From: Methanomassiliicoccaceae archaeon COG_1
GTDB taxonomy: Archaea; Thermoplasmatota; Thermoplasmata; Methanomassiliicoccales; Methanomethylophilaceae
Assembly: GCA_028561875.1 (NCBI GenBank)
Contig: JAQQTI010000004.1
Location: 87,444 to 151,443 of the forward strand
Length of the DNA: 64,000 nt
Direction of reading: 5' to 3'
Made by a program: the position numbers and the translations under genes. The number at the start of each line of letters is the position of its first letter. The first letter of the stretch is position 1. The notes beneath the pieces are model-generated. The model was not told the origin of the DNA, ran no database searches, and was given only the letters and a program-made list of their open reading frames with translations. Below, piece by piece: positions 6,819 to 58,532 of this stretch.

Positions 6819-7591
6819 TGATGAAGGGGCGCGCCATATCCGGCGGGAGGGCCGAGGGGGTCGCGATAACCTATCCCGAGGCGTTCAGCTTCCTCGGGGG
6901 CGTCGACGGCAGGACCGGGGAGCTCATATCCAGGGACGGGAACATCGGCGGCAGGGTCTTCCTCTTCCCGAAGGGGAAGGGCTCGACCGTCGGGTCGTAC
7001 GTGGTGTACGACCTCAGGGTGAGCGGGCACGCGCCCGCCGCCATCGTAAACCGGACGGCGGAGACCATCGTCACCACCGGCGCGGTGATCTCCTCGGTGC
7101 CGATGGTCGACGGTATCGACGTATCGATCGTCAGGGACGGCGACGTCCTCGCCGTGGACGGCGACGCCGGCACGGTGGAGATCAAAGGCGTCGAGGAGCG
7201 CCACGTCGCGACGGCGATGGTCGCCGTCGACGGGAAGGTGCTCCTACTCCGCAGGCCGGAAGGCGCCCGCTCGTTCCCGGGCGGATGGTCCCTCGTGTCG
7301 GGGGGCGTCGAGGGGGACGAGACCCCCCTGGAGGCCGCCCGCCGCGAGGTGAGGGAGGAGACCGGCATAGCGGTCGGCATGCCCGACGGCAGCCTGCCGG
7401 AGTTCCGCATCCGCGAGGGGGGGACGGTGTGGGTAGTGCACCCGGTGCTGTTCCGCCTCGAGGAGGCAGAGGTCGCGCTCAACGGCGAGAACGCCGCCTA
7501 CGAGTGGCTGCCCGCCGCCGAGGCCGCGGCCCGCGAGGGGCTGGTCGACGGCGTCGGTGACGTGATAGAGGGGTTCGCGAAGCTCCTGCGA
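6818..7591 (+). CDS. Phosphomevalonate dehydratase small subunit fused to a Nudix hydrolase
   Basis: 257 aa. Residues 1 to about 130 are the DUF126 swivelling small subunit of aconitase X (MMKGRAISGGRAEGVAI, then AAIVNRTAETIV). Residues 130-257 form a Nudix domain with a complete Nudix box beginning GGVEGDETPLEAARREV and ending EETGI. The usual small subunit stops after the first domain, so this is a genuine in-frame fusion; codon use is uniform throughout. The first in-frame CGA (7589-7591) follows EGFAKLL; a TAG comes four codons later. The Nudix half could act on an isoprenoid diphosphate or be a housecleaning enzyme; its substrate is unknown. Confidence 0.85.
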
Positions 7592-7659
7592 GGCCCCCGG
7601 TAGCGCCATCCTACCCGTGGATTCGAACGGTGAGCGCGGTCTCCCGCCCGGTTCCGCAT

Positions 7660-10867: not shown

Positions 10868-11896
10868 TCAGAACCATGAATCCAGCGACTTCTGCCGCCT
10901 CCTCGTCTCCTGCTCCATCCTGGCCTTCTCGATCCTGTCTAGCGCCCCGGACACCCTCTCAGGGTTGAAGTCGTACGATGCGAGCATCTCCACCGCCCTG
11001 TCCTTCTCCACCGGCCTGTAGTCCGTGGAGTAGGAGTCGTTGCCTTCGTAACGCAGGAATATGTCCCTGATCTCGGGGTACTCGGGGATCTCCTGCCCGA
11101 TCCTCGGCAGTATCCTCTCGAGGGAGCCGCCGTCCCTGACGAGCTTGAGGGCCTTCTTCGGCCCGATGCCCTTGATCCCGGGGTTGAAGTCGGTGCCCAT
11201 GAGTATGCACATGTCGACGAGCTGCTCCCGCGTGATGCCGAGGCCGGCGAGGAACGCCCCGGAGTCGATCACCTCGGTCCTGATCTCGCGGTAGACCTCC
11301 TTGCCCGGCATCTTCCTCCTCCCCGTTAGGGCGAGGTTGCGGAGCAGGACCGGCGTCCCGAAGAGGAGCGAGTCGAAGTCCTGCGAGGCCGCCGCGTACA
11401 CCGCTCCCTCCCGGCACATGTACGCCGCCTCCTGCTCGCCGTCGGAGGGGGCCTCGACGACGGGGAAACCCATGTATCCGATGAGCTCCTTGGCGGAGCT
11501 CTTCACCTCCTTGGTCATGCGCGAGGTCTGCTGCGCCTTGCGGCGGGCGGTCTCCATGTCGCCCTCGGCAATGGCCTCCCTCCACTCCTCGGTCGCCCTG
11601 TCCCTCCGCTCGGAGCGCTCCTTGAGCGTGGCGGCCTTGAGGGGGTGGGGCCTGCCGTCGAAGACGAAGACCGGCTCGATGCCCGCCTCGACGAGGTTCG
11701 CGGTGCGGTAGAGCAGGCCGGAGAGGTGAGAGGTCGTCCGGCCCTTGGAGTCGCACAGGGGATGCCCGTCGGGCTGCCGGATGGCCGACATGAACTGGTA
11801 GGCGATGTTGTAGGTGTCTATGGCGACCTTCTTCCCGCGGAGGTCCTCGAGCTCGACGCTGCGGGGCTCGGCGAGGCCGGAGAGGTTCACCCCCAT
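10868..11896 (-). CDS. fen: Flap endonuclease 1
   Basis: 342-aa structure-specific 5' nuclease that removes flaps in Okazaki-fragment maturation and repair. The start at ATG 11896 (MGVNLSGL) is the right N-terminus; the open frame upstream is non-coding shadow of rpe. Motifs: AIDTYNIAYQF (first metal-binding Asp), VFVFDGRPHPLK, PSDGEQEAAYM and GTDFNPGIKGIGPKKAL (helix-hairpin-helix). The C-terminal QKSLDSWF is a PIP box for PCNA. It overlaps the end of rpe by 10 bp and ends in TGA. Confidence 0.95.
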   Translation of the reverse strand: MGVNLSGLAEPRSVELEDLRGKKVAIDTYNIAYQFMSAIRQPDGHPLCDSKGRTTSHLSGLLYRTANLVEAGIEPVFVFDGRPHPLKAATLKERSERRDRATEEWREAIAEGDMETARRKAQQTSRMTKEVKSSAKELIGYMGFPVVEAPSDGEQEAAYMCREGAVYAAASQDFDSLLFGTPVLLRNLALTGRRKMPGKEVYREIRTEVIDSGAFLAGLGITREQLVDMCILMGTDFNPGIKGIGPKKALKLVRDGGSLERILPRIGQEIPEYPEIRDIFLRYEGNDSYSTDYRPVEKDRAVEMLASYDFNPERVSGALDRIEKARMEQETRRRQKSLDSWF

Positions 11897-12552
11897 CGGT
11901 CGCACTTCCCGATCGCGTGCCACTCCCCAATCTCGGCGGCCATGTCGGCGCTTCCGAAGAGGGAGCTGCCGGCGACGAGCACGTCCGCCCCCGCGCCTAC
12001 GCAGTCCGCCGCGCGGGCGCGGTCGATGCCGCCGTCGACGGAGACCTCGTACCCCGCGCCGCGCCCGCGGCGGCCGGCGGCGGACTCTATCTTGGGAAGG
12101 GTGCCGGGGATGAACTTCTGCCCGCCGAAGCCCGCCTTGACGGACATTACGAGGACGAGGTCCGCCCTGTCGAGGTACGGCTCTATCTCGGCCATCGGGG
12201 TCGCCGGGTCGAGGGCGATCCCCGCCCTCACCCCGCGCTCCCTGATCCTCTCCATCGCGGCGGGGATGTCCCCCCCCGCCTCCGCATGCACGGTCAGCAG
12301 GTCCGCCCCCGCGTCCGCGAAGTCGTCGATGTAGCGCACCGGGTCGGTGATCATGAGGTGCACGTCGAACGGGAGGTCCGAGAGCTTCCTCACCGATTTC
12401 ACGATGGGTGCCCCGAAGGTGAGGTTGGGGACGAAGACCCCGTCCATCACGTCGAAGTGGATCCAATCCGCCCCGCAGGCGTCCACCCTGCGGACCTCCT
12501 CGCCGAGGCGGGAGAAGTCGCAGGAGAGCATCGAAGGCGCTACTTTTACCAC
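11887..12552 (-). CDS. rpe: Ribulose-phosphate 3-epimerase
   Basis: 221-aa TIM-barrel enzyme interconverting ribulose 5-phosphate and xylulose 5-phosphate. Motifs: VAPSMLSCDF at the N-terminus, IHFDVMDGVFVPNLTFG (metal-binding His and Asp), VHLMITDP, and EVSVDGGI near the C-terminus with the catalytic Asp. It is the promoter-proximal gene of a two-gene unit with fen and ends in TGA inside the fen start region. Confidence 0.94.
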   Translation of the reverse strand: MVKVAPSMLSCDFSRLGEEVRRVDACGADWIHFDVMDGVFVPNLTFGAPIVKSVRKLSDLPFDVHLMITDPVRYIDDFADAGADLLTVHAEAGGDIPAAMERIRERGVRAGIALDPATPMAEIEPYLDRADLVLVMSVKAGFGGQKFIPGTLPKIESAAGRRGRGAGYEVSVDGGIDRARAADCVGAGADVLVAGSSLFGSADMAAEIGEWHAIGKCDRWG

Positions 12553-12731: not shown

Positions 12732-12947
12732 ATGTCGTCTACGGCGGGCCACGGGTCCAAAGCGGAAACCTGCGACGTCGACGGGTGCTCGAACGAGTCC
12801 GTCAGGTCGCTCAGCAAGAAGCAGGTCGCCAAGTCCGAGCTGAAGCTCAAGGCGGGGGAGCACCGCAGCGTGCACCTCTGCAAGGAGCATTACAAGGATT
12901 ACAAGAAGCAGACCAAGGACTCCAGGGAGATCGAGCAGATCTACCGA
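12732..12947 (+). CDS. Small zinc-binding protein upstream of RNase Z
   Basis: 71-aa basic protein with C-x4-C near the N-terminus (CDVDGC) and a later H-x-C-x2-H (HLCKEH) that could bind one zinc ion, followed by a lysine-rich helix. I do not recognise a named family. The reading frame has no standard stop until 13109, deep inside RNase Z, but its first CGA (12945-12947) follows EIEQIY and lies 5 bp before the RNase Z ATG, exactly where a TGA would be expected. Tight spacing implies co-transcription with RNase Z. Confidence 0.75.
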
Positions 12948-14523: not shown

Positions 14524-15765
14524 ATGGCTTCGAAGAAGAAGAACATCTACGTCAACGGGATCGACCAGGTCCCCGTGCCGATGAGGCAGATCGAGATCGT
14601 CGAGAGGAAGGGGGTCGGCCACCCCGACTCCGTGGCCGACAACATCGCCGAGACCGTCTCCCAGGCCCTCTGCAGGATGTACAAGGGCGAGGTCGGCCAC
14701 GTCCTCCACCACAACACCGACCAGACCGAGGTCGTCGCCGGCCGCGCCCGCTCGCAGTTCGGCGGCGGCTGCATCATCAAGCCGGTCTACGTCCTCATGG
14801 ACGGCCGCGCCACCACCGTCATCGACAAGAAGGGCCGGGAGACACTCCTCCCGGTCGAGTCCACCGCCCTCAGGGGCGTCAGGGAAATGCTGAGGAGGGA
14901 GTACCCGCTCCTCGACCTGGATTCCGACATCATCCTCGACACCAAGCTCGGCATGGGGTCCGACGACCTCACCGGCGTCTACAAGGCGTCGAACTACCTG
15001 TCCAACGACACCTCCTTCGGCGTCGGGTACGCCCCGTTCTCCATCACCGACTCCCTCACCTACGAGACCGAGAGGTTCATCAACGGGAGGGCCTACAAGA
15101 AGAGGCTCCCCGAGGCCGGCCAGGATGTCAAGGTCATGTGCTCCCGCGTGGGCGACAGGATAACCATGACCATCGCCTGCGCCATGGTCGACAGGTTCAT
15201 CGACGACCGGGACCACTACCGGTCCGCCGTGGACCAGCTCGCCGCCGACGTCAACGAGAACGCCCTCGACGTGATAAGCAGGGCGGGCTCCGGCGTCAGC
15301 CTCAAGGTCGAGGTCAACACCGGCGACGACTACAAAAGGGGCGTCCTCTACGCGACCGTCACCGGCCTCTCGCAGGAGAACGGCGACGACGGGTCCGTCG
15401 GCCGCGGCAACCGTTGCAACGGCCTGATCACCCCGTACCGTCCCATGTCCATGGAGGCCACCTCGGGCAAGAACCCCATCACCCACGTCGGGAAGATATA
15501 CAACGTGCTCTCCTCGATCATCGCGAAGGACGTGGCCAGGAAGGTGAAGGCCGAGGCGGAGATCCACGTCAGGCTCCTCTCGCAGATAGGGCACACCATC
15601 TCCGACCCCCTAAACGCCGCCATCGACATAATCGCGCCGGGGGCCGACGAGAACCCCAAGCTCCCCAAATGGCGGCAGGAGGCCTATTCCGTCGCCGCGG
15701 ACTGGCTTGACAACATTGATAAAGTCTCCGAGGATATCATCAATGGCAAGATAAGGACGTTCCGA
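14524..15765 (+). CDS. mat: S-adenosylmethionine synthetase, archaeal type
   Basis: 413 aa, the usual length of archaeal MAT, which makes AdoMet from methionine and ATP. Motifs: VERKGVGHPDSVADNIAE, HHNTDQTEVVAG, FGGGCIIKP, GMGSDDLTGVY and TSGKNPITHVGKIYN. All codons were read; the first and only CGA before the family end is 15763-15765, after GKIRTF. A single C instead of T there removes the TGA, and under the standard code the frame would run 215 more arginine-rich codons to 16413 across the next gene. A 20-bp palindrome starts on the base after the CGA, as expected for a terminator. Confidence 0.93.
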
Positions 15766-16409: not shown

Positions 16410-17363
16410 ATGAAGCACCAGCTCAGCTGGTCCGTCTTCGAGGGGTTCGACGAGATCCCCGGCCGCGGCTCCCTCGGGAGGAGGCTGGGCGCCCTCGGCG
16501 TCGACGGCCTGGAGCTTTTCACCCTCTTCCAGCCCGTGGAGGGCCGTTACAGGGTCCCGCAGGTGACGTCCGTCCATCTGCCATACGCCGTCGACTGGGT
16601 CTCTGCGTGGGAGGGCAGGAGCTACGAGGGCGAGCCCGACGACGTGCGCTACTTCTCGTTCGGGCGCGACCGGGAGGAGATGGTCTCGAACCTCTGCTCG
16701 GCGATCCGCCACGCCGCCGACGTCTCCCCCGCCTACGGCGTGCTCCACGCGGGCAACGCCGATATGCGCCGGGTAATGGAGCGCGTGCACGAGGGGAACG
16801 ACGCCAGGGTGCTCGGGTACTTCGCGGAGATGATGAACCGCGTGGCGTCCGAGCTCGGGGGCGAGCCCCCGTTCAGGATAGCGTTCGAGAACCTCTGGTG
16901 GGACGGCCTGAAGCTGAGGGAGCCCTCCGAGTGGAGGCTACTCGAGGGGAAGCTGGAGTTCGGCAACTGGGGTTTCGCCCTCGACACCGGGCACCTGATG
17001 AACACGTGCGACCGCGCCGTCGACGAGGAGTCCGCGATCGACGGGGTGCTCCGCATCGTCGACCGCTATCCGCAGGACATGAAGGACAGGATCGGCACGG
17101 TGCACCTCGTGCTCAGCACAACGGCGGAGGCGAGACGTTCGTTCGACTGCGTCCCCCGCGGGGAGGGGGAGCCGTTCTCGGATTTCCTGAGGAGGGTCGG
17201 CGAACGCGCCGCGAGCATAGACCAGCACCGCCCGTTCTCCAGCCCGAAGGCGGCGGAGATCGTCGACGCCGTGCGCCCGGACTTCGTGACGCACGAGCTC
17301 TACGGGCGTCTTTCAGGGGATCGCTTCGGCGACCTGCGGCAGCAGCGCGCCCTCTTCCCGCGA
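16410..17363 (+). CDS. Sugar phosphate isomerase/epimerase-like TIM-barrel protein
   Basis: 317 aa of the AP endonuclease 2 / xylose isomerase-like TIM-barrel superfamily. TSVHLPY, IAFENLWW, FALDTGHLMNTC and GTVHLVLS mark metal-binding strands. Substrate unknown. All codons were read: the first in-frame CGA is 17361-17363, after the region that closes the barrel; the standard code would carry the frame to 17912, 467 bp into the next gene. Its position just before the promoter of the GT87 gene supports this end. Confidence 0.78.
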
Positions 17364-19452: not shown

Positions 19453-20132
19453 AATTCGGGGACGAGGGAGACCGCAAGGCCGCCGTCGCCTTCTGGGCCG
19501 TCGAGGTTGCGATTTTCGCGGCCATGTTCGCCGCCGTCGCCGGGGGCGTCGCACCCGGTTTGGAGTGGCACCCCGCCTGGTACCTCGAGGCCACCTGCGT
19601 GATGTGCGCCCTGCTGCTCAGCGTCATCCCGGCCCTGAGGCTGGCGGGGGCGGTGAAGATGCCGTGGTGGCTCAACATCCTCCTCGCGGCCGACGTTTAC
19701 GTCTACTCCGTATCCCTGCTGCTCGGTTACTACATGAACCCCGACACCATGGGCTGGTGGGGCTTCTTCGGGCATGTGCTGTCATCGATGAGCGTGGGCG
19801 CCGTGGTGTTCCTGGCCCTGTGCCTGATCGAGAAGCACTCCCCGCCCCATGTCACCTTAGGCAGCAACGCGGCGATCCACTGCTACACCCTCATGATCTC
19901 CCTCGCCTTCGGCGGGGTATGGGAGGTCATGGAGGGGTACGTGGACGTCATCGCCGGGGACAGCATCATGGTCTACGGGAACTTCGACACCCTCGACGAC
20001 CTGAGGGCGGACCTGCTAGGCAGCGCCATCATGGTGTTCATAGCCGGCCTGATGATGAGGGGGAGGACGGCCGCCGACATCGCCGGTACGACCTACATGC
20101 GCAATCCCCTGAAGGGGCGCGGGGAGCAACGA
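19449..20132 (+). CDS. Membrane protein of unknown function
   Basis: 227 aa with six or so hydrophobic helices and conserved-looking polar motifs within helices ([13 protein letters not shown]). A TTG start is chosen because GGAGGTG sits 5 bp upstream and the codon overlaps the previous TGA. The first in-frame CGA is 20130-20132 after [11 protein letters not shown]; the standard frame would run to 20243, across the L40e promoter and half of the L40e gene. Similar fold to DUF2238-like membrane proteins is possible but unproven. Confidence 0.7.
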
Positions 20133-21542: not shown

Positions 21543-22829
21543 TTGGCGAAGATCGAGAAGGTATGGGCGAGGGAGGTCCTCGATTCCAGAGGCAACCCCA
21601 CCGTGGAGGCCGTGGTCACCGTAAACGGGCACGACGTCTCCGCAATCGCGCCGTCCGGCGCGTCGACCGGCATGTGGGAGGCGAACGAGCTCCGCGACGG
21701 CGGCCCCCGCTACGATGGGAGGGGAGTCGAGAAGGCGGTGCGGAACGTCCGCACTTCGATCGCGAAGGCGATAACCGGCATGGACCCCACGGACCAGAGG
21801 GGCGTGGACGAGGCCATGATGAGGGCGGACGGCACCGAGAACAAGAGCGTCCTCGGCGGCAACGCCACCACGGCGGTCTCCTTCGCCGTGGCCAAGGCCG
21901 GGGCGTACGTTCAGGGCAAGGAGCTCTACCAGTACATCGGCGGCGACCATATGACCCTCCCGGTGCCGATGTTCAACATCATCAACGGCGGCAAGCACGC
22001 CGGGGGCAACCTGGAGATACAGGAGTGCATGATCATACCCGCCGGCGCGGAGTCCTTCTCCGAGTGCCTGAGGATGGCGGCCGAGACCTACATGTCCCTC
22101 AAGGCGATCCTGAAGAGCAAGTACGGCGTGGGCGCGATCAACGTCGGCGACGAGGGCGGGTTCGCCCCGCCGGTAAACACCGTCTCCGAGGCCCTTTCGA
22201 CGATCGTCTCCTCCATCACCGACGCGGGCTACGTGCCCGGAGAGGACGTCTACCTCGGCATCGACTGCGCGTCGTCCGAGTTCTACGACGGGAAGACGGG
22301 GAAGTACCGCGTCGACGGCATGAAGCTCGACGCCGGCGAACTCGTCGACCACTACAAGGACATCATCGGCCAGTTCCCCCTCGTGAGCATCGAGGACCCC
22401 TTCGAGGAGAACGACTTCGCGACCACCGCGGATCTAACGAGGCAGGTCGGGAGGGAGGTGCAGATAGTCGGCGACGACCTGTTCGTCACCAACCCCAAGA
22501 GGCTGAGGGCGGGCATCGAGGCCGAGGCCGCCAACGCCCTCCTCCTCAAGGTCAACCAGGTCGGCACGGTCACTGAGGCGCAGGACGCCCGCGACCTGTG
22601 CGCGGAGAACGGCTACAGCGTCGTCGTCTCCCACCGCTCCGGGGAGTCCGAGGACACCACGATCGCCGACCTCTCCGTCGGGTGGGGCACCGGTCAGATA
22701 AAGACCGGGGCGCCCTGCCGGGGCGAGAGGACCGCGAAGTACAACCGCCTGCTGAGGATCGAGGATCGCCTCGGCCCGGACGCGGTCTTCTACGGGAGGA
22801 AGGCTCTGAAAGCTCCTTCGGCGCCCCGA
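21543..22829 (+). CDS. eno: Enolase
   Basis: Glycolytic enzyme converting 2-phosphoglycerate to phosphoenolpyruvate, 428 aa. A TTG start follows GGAGG. Motifs: VLDSRGNPTVEAVV, PSGASTGMWEANELRDG, NIINGGKHAGG, SIEDPFEENDF, VGDDLFVTNP, KVNQVGTVTEA and SHRSGESEDTTIADL. Family proteins end close to FYGRKALK; the first CGA follows at 22827-22829 and a TGA comes two codons later, so either end is possible. Confidence 0.95.
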
Positions 22830-23506: not shown

Positions 23507-24616
23507 TCGGTCCCACCCCATTACGCCCCGGTAGAGCCTGTGCACCTCGTCGAGGATTTCGCCGCACCCGAGTCTCCCGGCGCTCGCGGCGACCGCCGCG
23601 ACGGACGCCCCCCCGCAGCCCACGCCCTCCTTGATGTAGCCCCACTCGTAGGCCTGCAGGCCCTCGTACGGGCTCAAGGAGTAGTCCATGTTTATGTAGA
23701 CGATGGGGATCCTGTCGGAGATGTGCTCCATGAGCCTCTCCATGGAGGAGTTCGGGTCGGAGATCAGCCACCGGGTGGTGCCCTGCACGATGTTCCCCTG
23801 GATGGAGGGGTCGAGCTTCACCGCCGCGGCCATGACGGCCGCCATCTGCGTTCCCCCCCCGACGATGACCGGCACCCGTTTCGCGGCGCCGATGATCATG
23901 CCCACGTCCACGGGCATCATCGGGTCGCCGACGATCTCGATCGCCTTGAGCGGGTCGTCCGCGAGGCCGCCGATGTCGTAGCCCGCCCTGCCGATGCCCT
24001 CGACGGCGGTGTCGTACTTGAGCTGCTTCGGGTTCTTCGGCGAGGACGAGCTCACGAGGTTCTCCCTCACCGTGCCCATCGCGAGGAGCACCGCCAGCGC
24101 GGTCGTGGTTCCGCCGGCGCAGGACTCGGAGACGACGATGTAGTCGTGCGTCCTCGCGAGCTGCTCGCCGAGTATCCTCCCGTATTCGAAGCTCCGCCCG
24201 ACGTTGCTAACCGATCTCCCGCTGGTGATCTTCTCGCCGTACGTCCCGCCGACCTCGATGCAGGGGATGTTCGGGACGACCTTGCACCCGCCGTTGACTA
24301 TGAGCATCGGCATGCCGGAGAGCTCGAGGGAGGCCTTTGTCAGCGTCGCGGGGGTGGGGATCCCCCCGGGGTTGATGGGCAGCCCCCTCATGCACACCAC
24401 CTTGCCGAGGACGAGGAACTCCGCGTCGGCGGCGGGGGTGAATAGGGTGAGCTCGGGCGTATCGCCCGCCTCGGATATCCCGGGTATGGTCGACGTCAGG
24501 GTGTTGGCGACGGTGCAGGTGAACACGCCCCTCCTCCCCCAGATGCGGGAGAGGACGTCCTCCGCAATCCCGCGGTCTCCGCGCACGCCCAGGGAGGGAG
24601 GGAGTTCGAACGTCAT
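23507..24616 (-). CDS. cobT: CobT-like nicotinate-nucleotide phosphoribosyltransferase (UPF0284)
   Basis: 369 aa, archaeal UPF0284 group, proposed to activate the lower-ligand base of cobamides. Recognisable features: VSESCAGGTTTALAVL, PVIVGGGTQMAAVMA and the C-terminal VGCGGASVAAVA. ATG 24616 overlaps the TGA of the upstream mutase-like gene by 4 bp. The family ends near YRGVM; the first in-frame CGA follows three residues later (23507-23509), whereas the standard frame runs 31 more arginine-rich codons to 23414. Confidence 0.85.
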
Positions 24617-39387: not shown

Positions 39388-39624
39388 ATGAAGACAAAGA
39401 CGCTCCTAGTCCTCGCCGCCGCGGCGTACGCCGCCTTCGTGGCCGCCTTCGTGGCGATTTACCTCACCGCCGACTCCGACGCCCTGGCCATCGAACTGTC
39501 AGTGCTCGCTTCGGCGCTCACCACGGTGACCCTCGTGCTGGGCGTCCTGATATGGAGGGGGAGCCCCTCGGAGGAGTACGAGAGGTACATGCAGGAGAGG
39601 GAAGAGGAGGAAGGCAGGTGGCGA
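39388..39624 (+). CDS. Small two-helix membrane protein
   Basis: 78 aa: two hydrophobic helices (residues about 5-27 and 35-54) and an acidic tail (EEYERYMQEREEEEGRW). Not recognised. The first CGA (39622-39624) ends it 48 bp before the convergent CobN end; the standard frame would overlap cobN to 39720. Located in the corrinoid-chelatase cluster, so a role in metal transport is conceivable but unsupported. Confidence 0.6.
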
Positions 39625-39672
39625 GCCGCCGGCGTCCCCTCCTCGGGTTCCCCGCGATTCTCCATACGCTCC

Positions 39673-42600
39673 TCGCCTGTCGGTGACCTCCTCGATCCTC
39701 CCCTCGGTCTCGAGGTATAGCTCCCTGAGCCTCTCCCTGTACTCGTCCGTGGCGTTCCACAGCCCCCTCTCGATGGCCTCCTGCAGCCTGTTGAGTATGT
39801 TCATCGCCGCGTAGGGGTTCACGTCATCCATCCAATCGCGGACCCTCCCGTCCAAGAGGAACTTGTCGGCGAGGCCCTCGTACATCCAATCCTCGGCGAC
39901 GTCCGACGTCGCACCCCAGGCCATGGTGTACTCGGTGAGGTTCGCCATCTCGGCAGCCCCGCGGTAGCCGTGCTCCATCAGCCCCCCGATGAACTTCGGG
40001 TTGAGAACCTTCGACCTGAAAACGAACTGAAGCTCCGCCCTGGTGTCGCGGACCCTCGCCTTCTTGGGGTCGGAACCGTCGCCCATCATCGTCACCGCAT
40101 CCTTGCGCCCGTAGGCGCGGACGAAGGCGTTCATCCCCCCGAGGTACTCGTAGACGTCGTCGCAGTCGAGGAGGTCGATCTCCCTGTCGGGCATGTTCTT
40201 CACGGTCGCCGCGACCTTCGAGAACCTCCTCACGAACTCGTCCCTCATCTTCTGCCCGTACTCCCCCTTGGCGTACCCGTTGGAGCACCAGTCGACGTAC
40301 ATGTCGGCGATGTCCTCGACGGTCTTCCACGACGAGGCCTCGATCATCTTGTTCACCCCGGTGCCGTACGCCCCCGGGGGCGCGCCGAAGACCCTCACGG
40401 AGTTCCTCCTCCGCGCCTCGTCCGGCGTCAGGCCGGCGGCGATCCCGTCGACGATGTCCCTCCGCAGGTTGGCGGCGAGGGCGTTGTCCTCGTCCGCCTC
40501 GTCCAGTCCGGCGACGAGCTTCACCGCGTCGTCGATCATGTCGATGAGGTTCGGGAAGGTATCGCGGAACAGCCCCGTGATGTTCACGGTGACGTCGATC
40601 CTCGGCCTCCCCAGCTCTTCGAGGGGAACGGCCTCGAGGCCGACGACCTGCCCGCCGGTCTTGGACCAGACGGGCCTGACGCCCATAATCCAGAGGATGT
40701 ACGCCATGTCGTCGCCCCCGGTCTTCATGGTATCGGTGGCCCATATGATGAAGCCGATCTCGCGGGGGTAGGCGCCCTTCTCGGCCGCGTACTTCTCTAC
40801 CATCGCGTCAGCCATCCTCTTCCCCATCTCCCATGCCGAGCGGTTCGGCACGGTGCTCGGGTCCAGGGAGTAGTAGTTCCTCCCCATCGGCAGGATGTCG
40901 GCGTTGCCGCGGGTCGGCGCCCCCGACGGGCCGGGGAGGACGTACCTCCCGTTCAGGCCGGCGACCATGTTCTCCATCTCGTCCGCCGTCCTCGCGATGT
41001 TCGGCGCGAGCTTCCCGCAGACGTAGCGGACGCCCTCGGCGAGGTCGTCCCTGACGCCCCCGTACCTCTCCCTCAGCTGTGCCAGCGACCGCTCCGCATC
41101 GAAGCCGTCCTCCCTCATCCACGTTATGAAACCTCTCAGCTCCGAGTCCGCCCTCTCGGCGGCGGCGCCGAGCACCTCGCCGGAGGCGGAGCACTCCGCG
41201 GGATGGTCCAGGGCGTACCGTATGTCTATGCCCATGTTGTCCGCGAAGGAGTCGCGCAGGGACCTGACGCCGCCGTTGTCCAGTCTCATGAGGGAGTAGA
41301 CCGTCTCGTCGAGGTGCGTCCCCTCCGGCGCCCTTCCGAGCACGTGGAGGTCCGCCCGCACGAGCGCGTCCCTCACCTCCGTGAGGTACTCGTGCAAAGG
41401 GATGATGTAATCCGCGAACCCCCGCGCCCCCGGGTCTCCGGTTATGCCGAGGTCGTTGAACAGGCCGTTCTCCTTCGCCGCGTCGTAGATCTGCGAGACG
41501 AGGACGTCGAGCCTGTCGGGTGATGCCGTCGCCCTCAGCCTGAGGTAGTCCTGCAGGGGCACGTCTACCCGGTCGAGCTCCTCGTAGGAGTCGGCCCTCG
41601 CCATGGACGGCGGCATGTGCCCGACGAGGACGGAGCTGGACCTCCTCTTCGCCTGTATCCCCTCTCCGGGGTCGTCGACTATGTACGGGTAGATGTTGAT
41701 GAGGCCGTCCAGGACGAGGTCCGGCTCGCACTTCGCGGACAGGCCGACGTTCTTGCCGGGCAGCCACTCGAGGGTGCCGTGGGTGCCCATATGGAAGACC
41801 ATGTCAGCCTTGAAAGTTTCCTTCAGCCAGCGGTAGAACGCGAGGTACTGGTGCTGTGCGAAGAGCTCGGGATCGTGGACGTTCTGCTCCATCTTCTCCG
41901 CCCAGCCGCGCAGCGGCTGGTAGCCGACGAAGACGTTGCCCTTCACGATGCCGGGGATGACGATGTCTTCCCCGTCGACGCAGACGGTCCCAGGGGGTTC
42001 GCCCCAGTCCTTCTCCGTCATCTCGCGGTCCCATTCGGGGATTCCGGAGTACTGCCTCGCGTAGGCCCCCTTGGGGACCAGGTCCGCGGCCCTCTCCCGG
42101 AGGTAGGACGGGGAGACGTTGTCGAGGTCGTTGGTGACGTTATCGAGTATCTCTTGGACCAGCTCCCTCCCGTCCTCCGGGACGCCCTCCACCTGGTAGC
42201 CCTCCTCGGAGAGCCTGCGTAGCATGGCGGCCACGCTCTCCGGGGTGTCCAGTCCGGCGGCGTTCCCGATGACGCCGGAGCTGGGGCGGGACTGCCACAT
42301 GAGGATCGCTACCCTCCTCTCCGCTGTGGGTCTGCGCCGCAGCGACGCCCATCTCATCGCGTAGTCGCACATCCTCTCTATCCTCTCCGGGATGGGCACC
42401 GCCCTCTTCATCCCGGTCTTCTTGGGGGTGTAGGATATCGGCACGCAGTCGATGTCCCCGTCCAGCTCGGGGAAGGCGGCGTTCTGCTGCACCCCGCGCT
42501 TGTCCATGCCGACCTTGTCGTCCTCGAAGTCGCGGTATTCGCCGGTCACGCTCATGGCGAACAGCACGGGTACGTCCAGGAGGCTCTTGAAGAAGTTCTC

Positions 42601-46400: not shown

Positions 46401-47215
46401 GGAATTTCCTCGCGGCGAACGTCCGCCGGGACACCGTCGCGGCCATCGCCTCCGGCGTCCCCGTCGACGAGGCCCGCCGCGCCGCGTCGGCGAGGATCTT
46501 CGGCGACGCTCCCGGGACGTACGGCTGCGGCATCAGCGACATGGTGGGGCGCGGGGACTGGTCCTCCGTCGGCGACCTGGCCGCGGAGTACGTCAAGAGG
46601 GGGAGCTCGATCTACGGCCGCGGGCTCGCGGGAGAGTCCCGCCCCGACCTCTTCCGCCGCCGGCTGGGCGGGATCGACGCCGTGGTGAAGAACCACAACA
46701 CGAGGGCGGTGGACATGCTCGACATGGACGACGACATCGACTGCCTCGGCGGATTCTCCGCCGCCGTGGAGTCGGAGCGCGGGGAGAAGCCCGCCTCCTA
46801 CATGGGGGACTCCTCGGACATGCGGAACCCCAGGTTGCGCACGACCGCCGAGGAGGCGCGGTTCATCTGGCGCAGCAAGGTCGACAATCCGAAGTGGCTC
46901 GAGGGCCTGAGGAGGCACGGCTTCGCTGGCGCCAAGGAGCTGTCGAAGCTGTTCGACTACACGAACGGGTGGTCGGCCACCGAACGCATCATTGAGGGGT
47001 GGCAGTACGACGACCTGGCGGAGCGCTTCGTGCTCGACGGGGAGACGCGGGAGTGGATAAAGGACGAGAACCCCTATGCGATGATCGCGATGCTCCGCGA
47101 CCTGGAGGAGGCGAGGAGGCGCGGCTATTGGGACCCCGCGGACGAGACGGTCGAGAGGCTGAAGTCGGTGTACCTCGAGTTCGAAGAGAGAATAGAGGAG
47201 ATTACCGACCGTCGA
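43478..47215 (+). CDS. cobN: CobN-like cobaltochelatase large subunit (copy 2)
   Basis: 1245 aa, paralogue of the divergent copy. It shares VVHIGTHGTLEWLPGKSAGLS, VNPYIIDNPGEGMQSKRR, VLWATDTMKTGGDDVAYI and the C-terminal EEITDR. The end is CGA TGA in tandem (47213-47218), so the standard code adds just one Arg. Sequence divergence between the copies is considerable, suggesting different substrates or metals rather than a recent duplication. Confidence 0.92.
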
Positions 47216-49094: not shown

Positions 49095-49943
49095 ATGAAA
49101 CCGGTGGAGATCAGGGTCGACGGGCTATCTTTCAGCTATTCCAGCACCCCAGTGCTGAACGGCGTGACCATGGACATCGCGGGGCCGAGGTTCGTATCGA
49201 TACTCGGGCCGAACGGCGTGGGGAAGTCCACGCTCATACACTGCATCAACAAGATCCTCGCCCCGCAGGAGGGCACGGTCTGCATAGACGGGAAGGACGT
49301 GGGGGGAATCACCATCAAGGAGATGGCGAAGATCGTCGGGTACGTACCGTACTCGGCGAACGACGCCTTCCCGCTCACCGTCGTCGACACCGTCCTGATG
49401 GGGAGGCACCCCCACTCCAGGTGGGGCACGCTCGACAGGGACCTGGACGTGGTGTACGACACGCTGAAGCTACTCGGCATCTCCCACCTTGCCATGCGCC
49501 CGTTCAACGAGCTCTCCGCCGGGCAGCATCAGAAGGTGATGCTCGCCCGGGGCCTGGTGCAGGAGCCGAGGGCACTCCTCCTCGACGAGCCTACCTCCAA
49601 CCTCGACGTGAGGCACCAGCTCGACGTGGCCAAGATGCTCCGCCGCCTCGCTTACGGGAAGGGGATACTCGTGGTCATGATCAGCCACGACATCAACATC
49701 GCCGCGAAGTATGCCGACGAAGTAATCCTCATGCACGACGGCAGCGTCTTCGCCGCCGGCACGCCCGCGGAGGTCATAACCGAGGAGAACCTGCGCGAGG
49801 TGTACGGGGTCGCATCCAAGGTCATCGAGGACGAGGGCTCCCCGCACGTCATCCTGCGGGACGCCGTACCCATGGACGAGGAGAAGCCCGGGGCCCAGGC
49901 GGAGCACCGGGGCGCCAGGCTGCGCGAGGGCACCGAGGCCCGA
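49095..49943 (+). CDS. FecE/BtuD-type ABC importer ATPase
   Basis: 282 aa. Walker A LGPNGVGKSTLIHCINKIL, the loop VPYSANDAFPLTVVDTVLMGRHPH typical of siderophore/cobalamin importers, signature NELSAGQHQKVMLARGL and Walker B ALLLDEPTSNLD. It has no adjacent permease, so it may serve one elsewhere. The first CGA (49941-49943) follows LREGTEA and is directly followed by a hairpin; the standard frame adds seven residues to a TAG. Corrinoid uptake is likely from context. Confidence 0.88.
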
Positions 49944-50046: not shown

Positions 50047-50748
50047 ATGAAAGGAAAGCTCTACGGCGTAAGCGTCGGTCCCGGCGACCCGACCCTCCTC
50101 ACCGTCCGCTCGAGGGAGATCCTCGAGAGGGCGGAGGTCATAGCCTATCCCGTCAGGGACCCGACCGACGAGGGGACCGCCGCCGGCATCGCGGCGGAAT
50201 GCGTCGACGTCTCGGGGAAGGAGGTCGTCCCCCTGTTGTTCAGGATGGATCCCGATGACGGGGTCCGCGAGCAGTGCAGGAGGGAGGCCGTCGAGAGTAT
50301 GTGCTCGATGCTCGACAAGGGCAGGGACGTGGCCATGGTGGTCCTCGGCGACGCCGCGGTGTACAGCACGTACATGTACCTCGACCGCGAGATCAGGGGC
50401 AGGGGGTACGAGACAGAGATCGTCCCCGGCGTGCCCTCGTTCTGCCACGGTGCCGCGAAGGCCCGCATCCCTCTGATGATCGGCGAGGAGAGCCTCGCCG
50501 TAGTGTCAATGGCGAAGCACAACCTGTCGGGGGCGGAGAGGGCCCTCGACGCCTCAGACAACGTCGTGTTGATGAAGGCGTTTCTCGCCATACCAGAAAT
50601 CATCAAGATGCTGGAGGGGAGGGGCATCCCCCTCGCCAACGCCACGGTCATGAGCAACGTCGGGATGGAGGACGAGTACATCGGGCCGCTCGACCCTGAC
50701 AGGAAGTACGGTTACTTCACCACAGTCCTCGTGAAGAAGGGCGAACGA
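50047..50748 (+). CDS. cbiL: Cobalt-precorrin-2 C20-methyltransferase
   Basis: 233 aa, AdoMet-dependent tetrapyrrole methylase of corrin synthesis. YGVSVGPGDPTLLTVRSREIL is the glycine-rich AdoMet loop, VVLGDAAVYSTYMYL and EIVPGVPSFCHGAA are CobI/CbiL motifs. ATG 50047 follows AGGAGGTG. Every codon was read: the only CGA is 50746-50748 after LVKKGE, and the next gene's ATG begins two bases later (CGATATG). The standard frame would run out of frame to 51564. Confidence 0.93.
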
Positions 50749-52304: not shown

Positions 52305-52925
52305 ATGACGCCCCGCGAGATCGAGGCGAAGAGCATGGAGACAATCGAGAGGGAGCTCAACGGCCGCACCTGGCCGGAGCCCGAGTTCTCCATAGTGAAG
52401 AGATGCATACACACGTCGGCGGACTTCGACTACGCCGACAACCTGGTGTTCTCCGAGAACGCCGCGAGCATCGGGGTCGAGGCCCTGCGCAACGGCGTCG
52501 ACGTAGTCACCGACACCAAGATGGCGATGGCCGGCATAAACAGGAACCGCCTTGCCTCGCACGGCGGCGACGTGCACTGCTACATCAGCGACGCCGACGT
52601 CATCGAGGAGGCGAAGGCCCGCGGGTGCACACGCTCCACCGTGTCGATGGAGAGGGGCGCCGGGCTCGGCAAGCCGGCGATCTTCGTCGTCGGCAACGCC
52701 CCTACCGCATTGGTCGCGATACACGACCTTATCCAGGAGGGCAGGCTCAGGCCAACACTGGTGGTCGGCGTCCCTGTCGGCTTCGTCAACGTCGTCGAGT
52801 CCAAGGAGCTCATCATGGCCGACGACGTACCGTACATCGTGGCTCGCGGCCGCAAGGGCGGCAGCAACATCGGCGCCGCCATCATCAACGCCATGCTGTA
52901 CTCCATGGGAAGGTACGCCGACCGA
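52305..52925 (+). CDS. cbiC: Cobalt-precorrin-8 methylmutase
   Basis: 206 aa. Moves the C11 methyl to C12. Family motifs: IEAKSMETIEREL, VKRCIHTSADFDYADNLVF (catalytic His), VTDTKMAMAGINR and PVGFVNVVESKELIM. First CGA is 52923-52925 after GRYAD, and its final A is the A of the next gene's ATG (CGATG). The standard code would add CPTT and end at TGA 52940. Confidence 0.93.
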
Positions 52926-53806
52926 TGCCCGACTACGTGATCGAGGGCGAGGGCATCACCGTCCGCTACGGCGACTTCACCGCCGTGGATCGTATCGACA
53001 TCGCCGTCGAGCGGGGTGAAATATACGGCTTCCTCGGCCCCAACGGGGCGGGGAAGACCACCACCGTCAGGGCCCTCACCACCATGTCGAGGCCCACCGA
53101 GGGCGTCATCAGGATAGGAGGCCGCGCCATCTCGGAGGAGCCGGAGCGTGCCCGCTCGATGATCGGCGTGGTGCAGCAGCACATCGCCCTCGATAAGGAC
53201 ATCTCCGTGCGGGAGAACATCATCTGCAGGGCGCTGCTGCACAAGATCCCCAAGAGGGACATCGGGCCCCGCATGGAGGAGCTGTGCGGGGCGATCGGCC
53301 TCGTCCCCTACATGGAAAAGACGGTGAGCGAGCTGTCCGGCGGGTGGAAGAGGAAGGCCGCCATCGTCTGCGCCCTCATGCACATGCCTGAGATACTGTT
53401 CCTCGACGAGCCCACCGCCGGACTGGACACCCAGTCCAGGCACATGCTGTGGGACATGATCCGCATCATGAACAGGAGGGGGACGACGGTGTTCATCACC
53501 ACCCATTACATGGACGAGGCGGAGGCCCTCTGTGACCGCGTGAGCATCATCGGCTCCGGTAGGATAATGGACACCGGCACGCCGAGGGAGCTCTGCGCCC
53601 GTCTCGGCAAGTACGCTGTGGAGTACGACGGGGGAGGGGGGATCAGGGAGTACCGCTTCTTCGACTCCCGCGAGGAAGCGAGGGCGTTCTACGACTCCGT
53701 CGAAGGCATGAACGCGACCATCCGCGGTACGCACCTCGAGGACGTCTTCCTCGAGGAGACCGGGCGCACGAACATGCGCGTGTGCGAGGAGGCGTTGAGG
53801 TTGCGA
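52925..53806 (+). CDS. ABC exporter ATPase (DrrA-like), second copy
   Basis: 293 aa. Walker A GPNGAGKTTTVRALTTM, VVQQHIALDKDISVRENI, signature VSELSGGWKRKAAIVCALMH, Walker B ILFLDEPTAGLD and TTHYMDEAEALCDRV; close paralogue of the ATPase at 48095. The C-terminal part keeps REYRFFDSREEARAFYDSV, also seen there. CGA at 53804-53806 shares its A with the permease ATG (CGATG); otherwise seven residues would follow to TGA 53828. Confidence 0.91.
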
Positions 53807-54552: not shown

Positions 54553-55392
54553 TCGCCGCTTCTTCGCCTTACGGCGCTTCTCCATCGCGGATTCAGGGGG
54601 CTCGACCCCCATCTTAACGAGGCGGTCCCGGGCCTCCTTGCTGCCTTTGGCTGCCGCTTCCGCGTACATCTGCTTGGCGGTTTCTAGGAAGTCGGGCTCC
54701 AGCTGCATCCCGCGACGGTACAGTGCCTGGGGATACTTCGCCTCCGCCGACCTCTCTAGATACTTCTGCCCCTTGGCCGCGTCCCTCTTCTCGGGATAGT
54801 CAAGGCAGAGCTCGGCAAGGCGGTACATCGCCCGCGGGCTCCCGGACTTCAGGAGCCAGTATTCGGCGGCGTCAAGGTCTCTGGACTCCAGGCCCTCGCC
54901 CGTCATGCAGTGCTCCCCGAGGTTGGTCATCGACCTCCTGTTGCCTCCTTCGGCCCCCCTCTGAAACCATGCCACGGCGAGCGTCGGGCTCTTCTCCACC
55001 CCGTTCCCGTAGTCGTACATGACCCCGATGTTGCAGCAGGCGGCGGCGTTGCCAGCCTCCGCAGCGCGGGTGTACCACATCGCGCCGATCATTTTGTCCC
55101 GCTCGCACCCCTTCCCTACGGCGTAGCAGTAGCCGGCGTTCCTCATCCCGGAGGAGTCGCCCATGTCGGCGGCCTTCAGGAAGAGGTCCAGGGCGCGGGC
55201 GGGATCGTCCCCGTCCGCGAGGACGTAGCCGAGCAGGACCATCGACGCGGCGTCCCCCTTCACGACGTTCTCCTCGAGGAGCTCGCGGGCGCGCCCGCTC
55301 CCCGTGTCCGAGCGGATGAGCGAGGAGGCCTCGTCGAAGCGCCTGGCTATATCCGGGTCTTTAGAAGATGAACTGGAGGGGAAATCCAACAC
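54553..55392 (-). CDS. Sel1-repeat (TPR-like) protein
   Basis: 279 aa with about six Sel1-like repeats (pattern A-x2-G-x-A-x3-L-G-x2-Y), such as GAMWYTRAAEAGNAAACCNIGVMY. These helical repeats scaffold protein interactions. No signal peptide. GTG 55392 lies about 25 bp after TATATAGC-type TATA. The first CGA (54553-54555) follows RKAKKR and lies on the base after the convergent permease stop; the standard frame would run 129 codons through the permease. Confidence 0.85.
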
Positions 55393-55415
55393 GCGTCCCG
55401 CATCGGCGCAGGGGC

Positions 55416-55425: not shown

Positions 55426-55431
55426 AATCGT

Positions 55432-55839
55432 TCACGCGTGCCTGTCCATCTCGGCGTTGAGCAGGGCGTCGGCCCGGGGGACGAACTCCTCCGAGCGGCG
55501 GACGTTGCGGAAGGACGCATGGGGGACCTGGGAGCAGAGCGCGACGGCGTCGTCGTGCAGGGGTTTCATATCCTGGCTCTTCACTCTGTACTGCCCGGTC
55601 ATCTGCCTGACGACTAGCTGGGAGTCCATGACGAACTCCACCTCCTCCGCCCCGATCTCGATGGCGTACGAGATGTTGGCTATGAGGCCGCGGTACTCGG
55701 CATAGTTGTTTGTATGGATTCCCAGGAACTCGGAGCGCTCGTGCACGACCTTCCCGTCTTTCGTGCAGACGATGGCGAACGCGGACGGGCCGGGGTTGCC
55801 CCGGGACCCCCCGTCGGAGTAGAAGACGTACCTGGTCAT
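55432..55839 (-). CDS. rnhA: Ribonuclease HI
   Basis: 135 aa. [20 protein letters not shown] has the first catalytic Asp, NYAEYRGLI the Glu, [11 protein letters not shown] the second Asp, and [10 protein letters not shown] the final Asp, as in RNase HI/Sso-type enzymes that degrade RNA in RNA-DNA hybrids. ATG 55839 shares its A with the CGA that ends panD. Ends in TGA. Confidence 0.93.
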
Positions 55840-56186
55840 CGGTAGGTGAGCACCTTGACGACCTCGTTGTCCTTGTCTACCAGTAGCACCTTGGCCTTGA
55901 CCGGCTCGTCGGTCAGCTCGTACCCCATGATGATGACGGTGTCACCGGGGGCGGCGAGCCTGGCGGCCGCCCCGTTCAGGGCGATCGTCCCGGAGCCGCG
56001 CTCCCCGGGCACGACGTACGTCTCGAACCTGGCCCCGTTCTCGATGACGGCAACCGTGACCCTCTCGCCGGGGAGCATGCCGCAGCCGTCTACGAGGTCC
56101 ATGTCTACGGTGATGCTTCCCTCGTAGTCGAGCCTGGCCTCCGTGACCGTGGCCCTGTGGATCTTGCTCCTGAGCATCCAGCGCAT
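55839..56186 (-). CDS. panD: Aspartate 1-decarboxylase, bacterial pyruvoyl type
   Basis: 115 aa. Makes beta-alanine for pantothenate/Co[21 protein letters not shown] includes the Gly-Ser self-cleavage site that yields the pyruvoyl group; [17 protein letters not shown] and LNGAAARL are family motifs. Most methanogens use a PLP-dependent decarboxylase instead, so this may be a transferred gene. The end is CGA then TGA (55836-55841), with the rnhA ATG across them. A TATA (TTTAAGT) about 25 bp upstream suggests a leaderless mRNA. Confidence 0.92.
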
Positions 56187-56305: not shown

Positions 56306-56329
56306 TCGGTAGTCGGGCAGGTCGATCCA

Positions 56330-56881: not shown

Positions 56882-57645
56882 GGGTATCGTTGGACGGGGT
56901 CAGGGTCGGATATGGCTCGAAAGAGGTCGTCCACGGATTCACGGGCTGTTTTGAAACAGGCGACGTCGTATCGATACTCGGTCCGAACGGGTCCGGGAAG
57001 TCCACGCTGATCCGTGCAATAGCGGGACTGTCACAGGTTATGGAGGGGACGGTGTCGATAGATGATACGAACATACAGGACTACAGCCTGGACGAGCGCG
57101 CGAAAATCATCGCCTACATACCACAGAGCCATTCGTATATGCCGTACACGACGGTCATGGATACGGTGTTGACGGGCAGATGCCCGTACATAGGGCGGGA
57201 TCCCAGCGAAGAGGATCTGGGCATCGTCCAGGAATCGTTGGATATAATGGACGTTGGAGCCATAGCCGATCGCTACATAAACGAGCTATCGGGCGGGCAG
57301 AGGCAGAGGGTGTTCATTGCCAGGGCCTTGGCGCAGACGCCCAGGTTCTTCATATTCGACGAGCCCACCAGTTCGCTGGATCTGAAATACCAGATGGAGA
57401 CGATGATGATCATGAGGGACGTTGTGCATGAAAGCGATGCCGGGGCGATAATCGCCATGCATGACCTCAATCTCGCTCTTCATCACTCGGATGGCATCTA
57501 TGTTCTTAGAGAGGGCGATATGAGGTACTCCGGCGGTCCCGAAGAGGTTCTAACTCCGGACAACATCCGCGACGTGTACGGCGTTCATGTAGCACTGGCA
57601 GATACTGAATACGGGAGGTTCATCCTACCGTATGGGGCCGTCCGA
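56878..57645 (+). CDS. FecE/BtuD-type ABC importer ATPase
   Basis: 255 aa. Walker A LGPNGSGKSTLIRAIAGL, the loop IPQSHSYMPYTTVMDTVLTGR, signature NELSGGQRQRVFIARALAQ, Walker B FFIFDEPTSSLDL and H-loop AMHDLNLALHHSD. Its own permease is the truncated chimera upstream, so it is probably orphaned. The first CGA (57643-57645) follows FILPYGAV; the standard frame adds 51 residues overlapping the convergent ATPase gene. Confidence 0.88.
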
Positions 57646-57731
57646 AGGGTTCCCAATTTCATCGACAGCCGGCATCCGATCCAATCCCGCTTACGAGTCG
57701 CCCAGGTAATCCAAACAATCGGTGCATCCCT

Positions 57732-58532
57732 TCGCCGATCGACATTGCCGCACGAATCATGGAGCAATACGGTGTTTCTTCCAATTTTCCCGTCGTAAAT
57801 GAGCTCCGCATCCACGTTGAACACCGCCCTCATATTCTCAGGCGTCAGGACGTCCTGCGGGGTCCCCTCGCAGAGCACCCTGCGGTCATGCATCATCACG
57901 ATGCGGTCGCAGTATCTGGCCGCCATGCCGAGGTCGTGGGATACGATAACCACGGTGAGCCTCTGCTCACGCGACAGCTTCTGCACCAGATTCAGAACGT
58001 CGAATTGCATGCAGACGTCCAGGTGCAGGGTCGGCTCGTCCATGAGGATCATCTCGGGCGATTGCGCCAAGGCCCTGGCGATTATCACCCTCTGGCGCTC
58101 GCCGCCGCTCAGCTCGTTGATGTAGCGGCCCTTATAGTCGGTCAGGTTCGTCATCTCTATCGCGTTCTCGATGATGTCGCGGTCCTCGCGCGATTCGGGC
58201 GAGAACCGGTCCTGGAATGGCATCCGACCCATAGCCACGATCTCCCTGACGGTGAATGTGAACCTTATCTCGTTCCCTTGGGGGACAGAGGATACTGTCC
58301 TCGCAATGTCTTTCTTGGACATTTCCGACAGATCGGAATCCAGTAGGACGACGCGTCCAGAATCGGGGACCAGATTCTTGTTGAGGTGCTTTATGAAGGT
58401 CGTCTTGCCGCACCCGTTGGGTCCGAGGACGCCGAGGATTTCGCCTTTGCGGATGTCCATGCTGATCCCGTCGAGTATCTTTCTGTCGCGATAGCTGAAC
58501 ACGATCTGCTCGGACTTCTCCAGGACGTTCAC
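57732..58532 (-). CDS. fecE: FecE-type ABC importer ATPase
   Basis: 266 aa. Walker A LGPNGCGKTTFIKHLNKNL, SVPQGNEIRFTFTVREIVAMGR, signature NELSGGERQRVIIARALAQ, Walker B MILMDEPTLHLDV and VSHDLGMAARYCD. The GTG start 58532 overlaps the TGA of the permease gene (GTGA). First CGA is 57732-57734 after GNVDR. Third gene of a fecB-fecCD-fecE importer for iron chelates or corrinoids. Confidence 0.9.

What the first reader, a model, noticed from the sequence alone, without database searches (positions are those of the whole stretch)
7589..57734. CGA appears to be a translation stop codon in this genome
About 23 genes have no standard stop at their family C-terminus, and in each the first in-frame CGA is at that point. 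CGA codons, by first base in gene direction: 7589, 12945, 15763, 17361, 20130, 22827, 23509(-), 25731(-), 29242, 30532(-), 38259(-), 39622, 39675(-), 47213, 49941, 50746, 51509, 52923, 53804, 54555(-), 55841(-), 57643, 57734(-). A complete reading of ileS (985 codons), cas7e, casB, cas1, AdoMet synthetase, cbiL and the TIM-barrel gene found no CGA before the end. In archaea CGA is read only by tRNA-Arg(UCG), because A34 is not converted to inosine; loss of that one tRNA would free CGA while CGC/CGT and CGG stay readable. GC pressure would then turn TGA into CGA if the release factor accepts YGA. I know of no described archaeal code with CGA as stop.
Basis: partly seen in the sequence, partly recalled or inferred. 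Interest (0 to 1): 0.97.

Follow-up and report, generated by a model that had tools for sequence, protein, structure and literature searches.

The report
Archaea that stop at CGA
In this archaeon, a relative of gut methane-makers, the triplet CGA (arginine in the standard code) stands at about a third of the gene ends examined and almost never inside genes, so it is likely read as a stop signal; the gene for the release factor itself keeps one CGA inside, which would let that factor sense its own level.

Summary
All 23 codons are CGA, and CGA behaves as a stop in the sampled genome, not only in this window. A test without reference proteins on 464 kb of the 1.51 Mb genome put CGA at gene ends 112 times, inside genes 3 times, undecided 3 (TGA 178/10/3; AGG 373/2396/392): 35% of 318 stops classed. 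NCBIfam profiles for MAT, HisF, CbiL, CbiF, HypF and CobN finish 0-9 residues before it. The state is wider than one genome: in 11 of 12 genomes of the genus with cmk, CGA ends cmk just before cbf5, and a second clade, separate on the tree, also ends genes at CGA. Best reading: aRF1 terminates at CGA in competition with a weakened tRNA, and its own CGA is a feedback sensor. Termination and charging are untested; no RNA or protein data were available.

The parts
7589..7591 (+). CGA ending a gene with AcnX-swivel and NUDIX domains
   Evidence: next standard stop 3 codons on
11896..11898 (-).
   Evidence: next standard stop 2 codons on
12945..12947 (+). CGA ending a short unidentified gene
   Evidence: weakly characterised
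15763..15765 (+). CGA ending methionine adenosyltransferase
   Evidence: profile 2-400/400 ends at residue 413, CGA is codon 414 (523.5 bits, cut-off 553)
17361..17363 (+). CGA ending an unidentified gene
   Evidence: no NCBIfam match
20130..20132 (+). CGA ending an unidentified gene
   Evidence: no NCBIfam match
22827..22829 (+). CGA ending enolase
   Evidence: Enolase_C ends at residue 423 of 428
23507..23509 (-). CGA ending a DBI_PRT-like gene
   Evidence: domain ends well before
25729..25731 (-). CGA ending hypF
   Evidence: profile 3-740/741 ends at residue 741 of 745
29242..29244 (+). CGA ending an unidentified gene
30530..30532 (-). CGA ending hisF, followed directly by TTG of hisIE in the same frame
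   Evidence: HisF profile ends at residue 251 of 251
36419..36421 (-).
38257..38259 (-). CGA ending an AAA / Mg-chelatase subunit I-like gene
   Evidence: AAA_lid_2 ends at residue 339 of 345
39622..39624 (+). CGA ending an unidentified gene
39673..39675 (-). CGA ending a cobN-type gene
   Evidence: profile 135-1225/1226 ends at residue 1240 of 1249
47213..47215 (+). CGA (then TGA) ending a second cobN-type gene
49941..49943 (+). CGA ending an ABC ATPase gene
50746..50748 (+). CGA ending cbiL, one base before the ATG of the next gene
   Evidence: profile 1-230/230 ends at residue 232 of 234; a below-cut-off model runs 2 residues further than the CGA-1 residue
51509..51511 (+). CGA ending cbiF
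   Evidence: profile 1-247/247 ends at residue 249 of 253
52923..52925 (+). CGA ending cbiC, overlapping the ATG of the next gene (CGATG)
53804..53806 (+). CGA ending an ABC ATPase gene
54553..54555 (-). CGA ending an unidentified gene
   Evidence: only a weak partial MerG match
55839..55841 (-). CGA (then TGA) ending a short gene
57643..57645 (+). CGA ending an ABC ATPase gene
   Evidence: profile 4-253/256 ends at residue 252 of 255 (below cut-off); not classified by the codon test
57732..57734 (-). CGA at the proposed end of an ABC ATPase gene

Best explanation
CGA stands at 112 of 318 classed gene ends in the sampled third of this Methanomethylophilaceae genome and inside almost no gene, and it is predicted to be read as a stop by the archaeal release factor aRF1 in competition with a likely weakened tRNA-Arg(UCG). 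Shown in sequence: CGA sits where relatives have TGA, is purged from gene bodies, and remains at conserved arginines mainly in aRF1 and ribosomal protein L18e; tRNA-Arg(UCG) keeps its anticodon but carries U73 in nearly the whole genus. Inferred: aRF1 accepts C as well as U as first base before GA, and poor charging of the U73 tRNA favours termination. Inferred: the single CGA kept in aRF1 is a feedback switch, so that plentiful aRF1 ends its own synthesis there while scarce aRF1 lets the tRNA insert arginine and complete the protein. Inferred: once CGA was nearly empty, T-to-C change of TGA stops made it a common stop in this genome.
For: Terminal/internal split of CGA like that of TGA and unlike other Arg codons. 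29 of 33 CGA ends within 3 codons of the relative's stop. Full-length profile ends 0-9 residues before CGA in 6 genes. cmk-CGA-cbf5 in 11 of 12 genus genomes with the gene, standard stop in 15 of 15 outgroup genomes. Second clade: CGA 8 terminal, 1 internal in 240 kb of G016, the internal one being aRF1 codon 78; 11 of the 12 internal CGA of its named loci are that same codon. Screen of 7 genus genomes: apart from gene junctions the only in-frame CGA scored were aRF1 codon 25 and an HTH gene of G000. aRF1 has CGA in 53 of 57 family loci, argS in 13 of 55, trpS in 4 of 37. U73 in 12 of 13 genus tRNA-Arg(UCG), G/A73 in 9 of 9 outgroup ones.
Against: No protein, RNA or biochemical data. tRNA-Arg(UCG) exists with an intact anticodon and acceptor stem. 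L18e codon 33 (order-wide), an HTH gene of G000 (L082 nt 19068), a gmhA/gmhB junction (L076 nt 17037), G010 L354 nt 2967 and L188 nt 6932 hold CGA in frame. aRF1 CGA is frequent also in relatives that use CGA as sense, and 4 of 57 family loci lack it. The second clade has A73 in G016, so U73 cannot be the common cause. No recognition change unique to the stop clades was found in aRF1. G011 and G012 have only 2 and 3 terminal CGA, all close to a standard stop, which could be noise. Of 35 CGA sites checked in other genomes, 14 had a relative's stop within 4 codons, 11 had no homologue and 10 were uninformative or disagreed.
Confidence: 0.75

Rival explanations
1. CGA is an unassigned or starved codon: ribosomes stall there for lack of charged tRNA-Arg(UCG) and are removed by rescue (Pelota and partners) rather than by aRF1.
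For: U73 tRNA; CGA almost absent from gene bodies also where it is a rare end codon (G011, G012).
Against: CGA is 35% of classed ends in G000, among them enolase, MAT and HisF, and it ends genes with the next start overlapping or adjacent; rescue would be a costly routine ending. aRF1's own CGA fits a link to release.
Confidence: 0.12
2. The genes end at UGA in the RNA: a C-to-U editing activity changes CGA to UGA in mRNA.
For: DNA data alone cannot exclude it; TGA of relatives stands at the same places.
Against: No such system for mRNA stops is known to me in archaea (recall); it would have to act on more than a hundred sites here and spare aRF1 and L18e.
Confidence: 0.04
3. CGA is an ordinary but avoided arginine codon; genes really run on to the next standard stop.
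For: A tRNA-Arg(UCG) gene is present; CGA is sense in more distant relatives.
Against: Coding signal stops at CGA in 112 of 118 classed cases; 35 of 112 extensions would be 100 codons or more without coding signal; relatives' stops stand at the same place.
Confidence: 0.03
4. CGA is a stop, but the CGA in aRF1 is not a feedback switch: it is a leftover or is kept for speed or folding reasons.
For: aRF1 carries CGA also in relatives where CGA is sense; L18e keeps a CGA through a nucleotide-level constraint, so another cause is possible for aRF1.
Against: In aRF1 the neighbouring synonymous sites vary while the CGA stays; the position differs between clades (11, 25, 27, 50, 78, 99, 123), and argS, trpS and other neighbours do not show it.
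Confidence: 0.25

Closest known systems
Sense-to-stop codons of green-algal mitochondria (UCA, UCG; PMC6821328, passages read)
   Same: A sense codon is used as a stop after becoming rare, in a one-release-factor system.
   Different: Organelle genomes; serine codons; there the release factor has matching mutations, none found here. [quoted passage not shown]
Arginine-codon reassignments in Bacteria (Codetta screen, PMC8629427, passages and Discussion read)
   Same: CGA/CGG driven to low use and given a new meaning.
   Different: New meaning is an amino acid, in low-GC genomes; here it is stop, in a GC-rich genome. The authors state that new stop codons cannot be detected by their method.
prfB (RF2) autoregulation in Bacteria (PMC12421855, abstract read)
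   Same: A release-factor gene holds an in-frame codon that its own product would read as stop, near the gene start.
   Different: RF2 uses UGA and a +1 frameshift; here the reading frame continues, so readthrough by a tRNA would be needed; aRF1 is not related to RF2 (recall).
Ciliate codes with context-dependent stops (PMC4967479, listing and start of abstract seen)
   Same: One codon with both a stop and an amino-acid meaning.
   Different: There standard stops gained sense widely; here a sense codon would have gained stop, with sense left at a few sites.

Membership tests
Sense-to-stop codon reassignment | Codon stands at homologous gene ends | tested here: met
Sense-to-stop codon reassignment | Codon absent from conserved gene interiors | tested here: met
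   with the named exceptions aRF1, L18e and a few single cases
Sense-to-stop codon reassignment | Cognate tRNA lost | tested here: not met
   tRNA-Arg(UCG) present; so reassignment is at most incomplete, hence I call the codon dual
Sense-to-stop codon reassignment | Release at the codon shown in protein or in vitro | not testable with these tools
   no proteomics or biochemistry
Codon capture | Codon near-empty before it takes the new meaning | tested here: inconclusive
   congeners G011 and G012 are nearly empty of CGA, but the order of events was not reconstructed
Release-factor autoregulation by in-frame stop (prfB-like) | In-frame stop-type codon in the release-factor gene, conserved | tested here: met
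   aRF1 codon 25 in 14 of 14, codon 78 in 16 of 16
Release-factor autoregulation by in-frame stop (prfB-like) | Programmed frameshift at the codon | tested here: not met
   protein conservation continues in the same frame across the CGA
Release-factor autoregulation by in-frame stop (prfB-like) | Synthesis falls when the factor is plentiful | not testable with these tools
   needs a reporter

The most novel reading that the evidence does not exclude
CGA became a stop codon at least twice in one family of archaea, the first sense-to-stop change in a cellular genome, run by a tug-of-war between aRF1 and a retained tRNA-Arg(UCG), with the release factor's own gene keeping one CGA as its thermostat.
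Probability: 0.55. Interest if true: 0.98.

Novelty: new variant of a known kind. Interest (0 to 1): 0.95.

Why it matters
Code changes outside organelles are known mainly as stop-to-sense or sense-to-sense. A sense codon turned stop in cellular genomes, caught at different stages (a few ends in most sampled relatives, a third in this one) and with sense relics in two genes, would make the ambiguous stage of code change directly testable. Gene calls in these genomes would run past many true ends and fuse neighbours (MAT, HypF, CbiL, hisF-hisIE, cmk-cbf5). It would also give archaea a candidate release-factor feedback loop.

Tried and rejected
Loss of tRNA-Arg(UCG): rejected, the gene exists. 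A change confined to this genome: rejected. Sequencing error: unlikely, because the pattern depends on reading frame and the cmk and aRF1 sites recur in separate genomes. CGA as sense in ordinary genes: most internal cases were shadow reading of upstream or overlapping genes (seen for the printed cases). A recognition change unique to the stop clades in aRF1: none found. CGATG overlaps as proof of coupling: 17 of 112 CGA ends against 339 of 3719 CGA of any phase in the window, too weak to use. My first codon-usage run did not exclude CGA lying just after a standard stop; the figures used are from then on. pheS and rimI counts are inflated by shadow N-termini and were not used. One aRF1 locus (L229) was dropped because its start is missing. 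Not done: proteomics, RNA reads, structure prediction, protein-database search.

Full report
Observation. All 23 codons are CGA. The window is G000:C4:87444-151443 of a 1.51 Mb, 6-contig, 86% complete genome. The nearest named records are Ca. Methanomethylophilaceae and other Methanomassiliicoccales, several from rumen, faeces or termites (the window's own record is not named). From recall only, the lengths of G011 and G012 resemble strains BRNA1 and ISO4-H5.

Reference-free test. For each codon I asked whether the 40 codons before and after it look like coding sequence in that frame rather than in the other five. In 464 kb of G000, with no standard stop or CGA in the 40 codons before: CGA 112 terminal, 3 internal, 3 undecided; TGA 178/10/3; TAA 25/1/2; TAG 3/2/1; AGG 373/2396/392; CGC 218/1591/267; CGG 110/551/96. 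So CGA is 112 of 318 terminal codons. Of the three internal ones, two are followed at once by a start codon of the next gene (L076 nt 15476 GTG; window 30532 TTG) and one is a gmhA/gmhB junction without a clear start. The median run from CGA to the next standard stop is 31.5 codons; 35 of 112 are 100 or more.

Homology test. Against G011, a congener, 115 orthologues gave 32,475 aligned codons with 33 CGA (CGC 739, AGG 1098). Most of the CGA lay in shadow-read N-terminal overlap; those in true frame were aRF1 and an HTH regulator. Of 85 pairs with an aligned C-terminus the first terminator in G000 was TGA 45, CGA 33, TAA 5, TAG 2; 29 of the 33 CGA are within 3 codons of the G011 stop. I gave ten of the window's CGA-ended frames read through to the next standard stop: profiles for MAT, HisF, CbiL, CbiF, HypF and CobN (five over cut-off, MAT 523.5 of 553 bits) end 0-9 residues before the CGA; a below-cut-off CbiL model runs to the residue after the CGA; an ABC-ATPase model (below cut-off) ends 3 before; two proteins had no match and one only a weak partial match (MerG). 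Matches beyond the CGA in two frames belong to the next genes (hisIE, phosphoglycerate mutase). Ten further frames against Pfam: no domain reaches past the CGA, but most domains end well before it.

How wide. Share of CGA among terminal codons: G000 112 of 318, G010 16 of 203, G016 8 of 155; G006 3 of 51, G001 2 of 19, G004 0 of 18, G011 2 of 298 and G012 3 of 227. In G011 and G012 all lie within 12 codons of a standard stop. cmk ends at CGA, directly or one codon before the ATG of cbf5, in 11 of 12 genus genomes that have it; G005 has a standard stop there, as have 15 of 15 outgroup genomes; G008 and G009 gave no match. I checked 35 CGA sites of G010, G016 and the second clade against relatives: 14 had a relative's stop within 4 codons, for instance at offset 0 for the kinase of L184 and L188, 11 had no homologue, and 10 were uninformative or disagreed. 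On a tree of aRF1, ArgRS and kinase (72 tips) the genus (1.0) groups with Methanoplasma and relatives (0.99), while the codon-78 clade (14 tips, 1.0) groups with the UBA72 set (0.67). Methanoplasma loci have 13 internal, 6 undecided and 1 terminal CGA, 7 of the 13 in aRF1 itself; UBA72 loci 7/5/1; order-level outgroups 49/19/10 (looser filter). This points to two gains of the stop meaning.

Sense relics. aRF1 has exactly one CGA in all 14 genomes of the genus, at codon 25 within conserved protein; in a comparison group of 16 (13 named loci of the codon-78 clade, G016, and L182 and L193 which fall elsewhere) it is codon 78. Other conserved arginines of the gene use other codons, mostly mixed; R186 is fixed as CGT, so fixation alone is not the argument: the retention of a codon purged elsewhere is. 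Across 57 family loci 53 have a CGA in aRF1, 84 in 23,194 codons, against 30 in 30,012 for argS and 4 in 13,759 for trpS; in the subset where the other genes are poor in CGA, 39 of 43 against 5 of 41 and 1 of 29. The loci are related, so these are not independent counts. The four without are L204, L210, L213 and L243; the L204/G015 lineage shows 7 internal and 2 terminal CGA (some may be shadow frames). L18e codon 33 is CGA in 28 of 28 genomes that my script read of 30, across the order, and the exact 14 bases ATCTGGCGAGACAT occur in 28 of the 30 L18e loci. That constraint is older than the stop meaning and looks nucleotide-level, so it is not evidence for feedback, but it means that CGA must still be read as an amino acid there.

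tRNA. G000 has Arg tRNA genes CCU, GCG, CCG and UCG, and a damaged UCU-like gene. The UCG gene has a full acceptor stem and TCG anticodon, and U73 where the other three have G73. U73 is found in 12 of 13 genus genomes with the gene (G004 has G73; G009 not found), G or A73 in 9 of 9 outgroup UCG genes. A review gives arginine identity as A20, C35, base 36 and A/G73, says archaeal elements are poorly known, and that yeast does not need base 73 (PMC9976931, passages). So weaker charging is a fair inference, not a result. G016 has A73, so the second clade would need another route.

Mechanism. I favour aRF1 reading YGA in competition with tRNA-Arg(UCG). aRF1 keeps NIKS and YRCDxxFF. Residues A56 and T63, flanking NIKS, are shared by both clades and rarer in 37 CGA-sense or outgroup sequences (12 and 7), a weak lead. 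Shown: the distribution of CGA and the tRNA sequences. Inferred: release at CGA, weak charging, feedback, GC drive.

Literature. Searches of the held library: CGA, stop codon, archaea, genetic code, reassign, arginine; Methanomassiliicoccales, CGA, codon (0 papers); sense-to-stop; ArgRS discriminator; prfB; CGA, termination codon, archaeal, aRF1; Methanomethylophilaceae with code terms; new stop codon and archaea; ISO4-H5 and proteome. The listed titles and abstract starts show no archaeal code with CGA as stop. Subscription papers and preprints are not held. The Codetta paper says it cannot detect new stop codons, and reports 218 uninferred sense-codon cases among 2309 archaeal species; whether CGA of this family is among them I did not check.

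Noticed in passing
L246-L275 (L18e genes); in this genome L069 9029-9042: A 14-base stretch ATCTGGCGAGACAT around codon 33 of L18e is identical in 28 of 30 genomes across the order although nearby synonymous sites vary; cause unknown (RNA element?).
   Followed up: partly
G000:C1:379642-379700 (L071): tRNA-Arg(UCU)-like gene whose 3' acceptor strand looks missing; no intact UCU gene was reported by ARAGORN in the G000 stretches and tRNA loci held.
   Followed up: no
G000:C3:11733-11790 (-) (L076): Weak tRNA-like stretch (24 bits) with a TCA triplet in the anticodon position and a long D-stem; could be a degenerate tRNA or a tRNA-Sec-like remnant.
   Followed up: no
L082 nt 19068 (+): HTH regulator gene of G000 with an in-frame CGA at codon 11, where the congener G011 has another arginine codon; a broken, regulated or differently started gene.
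   Followed up: partly
L354 nt 2967 (+); L188 nt 6932 (-); L076 nt 17037 (+): Single CGA codons classed as internal that I cannot explain.
   Followed up: partly
L075 nt 13555, L091 nt 14087, L100 nt 14060, L141 nt 19332 and others: In-frame TAG inside genes in several genomes, as expected if TAG is read as pyrrolysine (recall for this order); TAG is rare as a terminator (3 of 318 in G000).
   Followed up: no
window 39502-43422 (-) and 43478-47215 (+): Two large CobN/Mg-chelatase H-type genes lie back to back (divergent) and both end in CGA.
   Followed up: no
aRF1 codons 56 and 63: A56 and T63 flanking the NIKS motif are shared by both CGA-stop clades and rarer elsewhere.
   Followed up: partly
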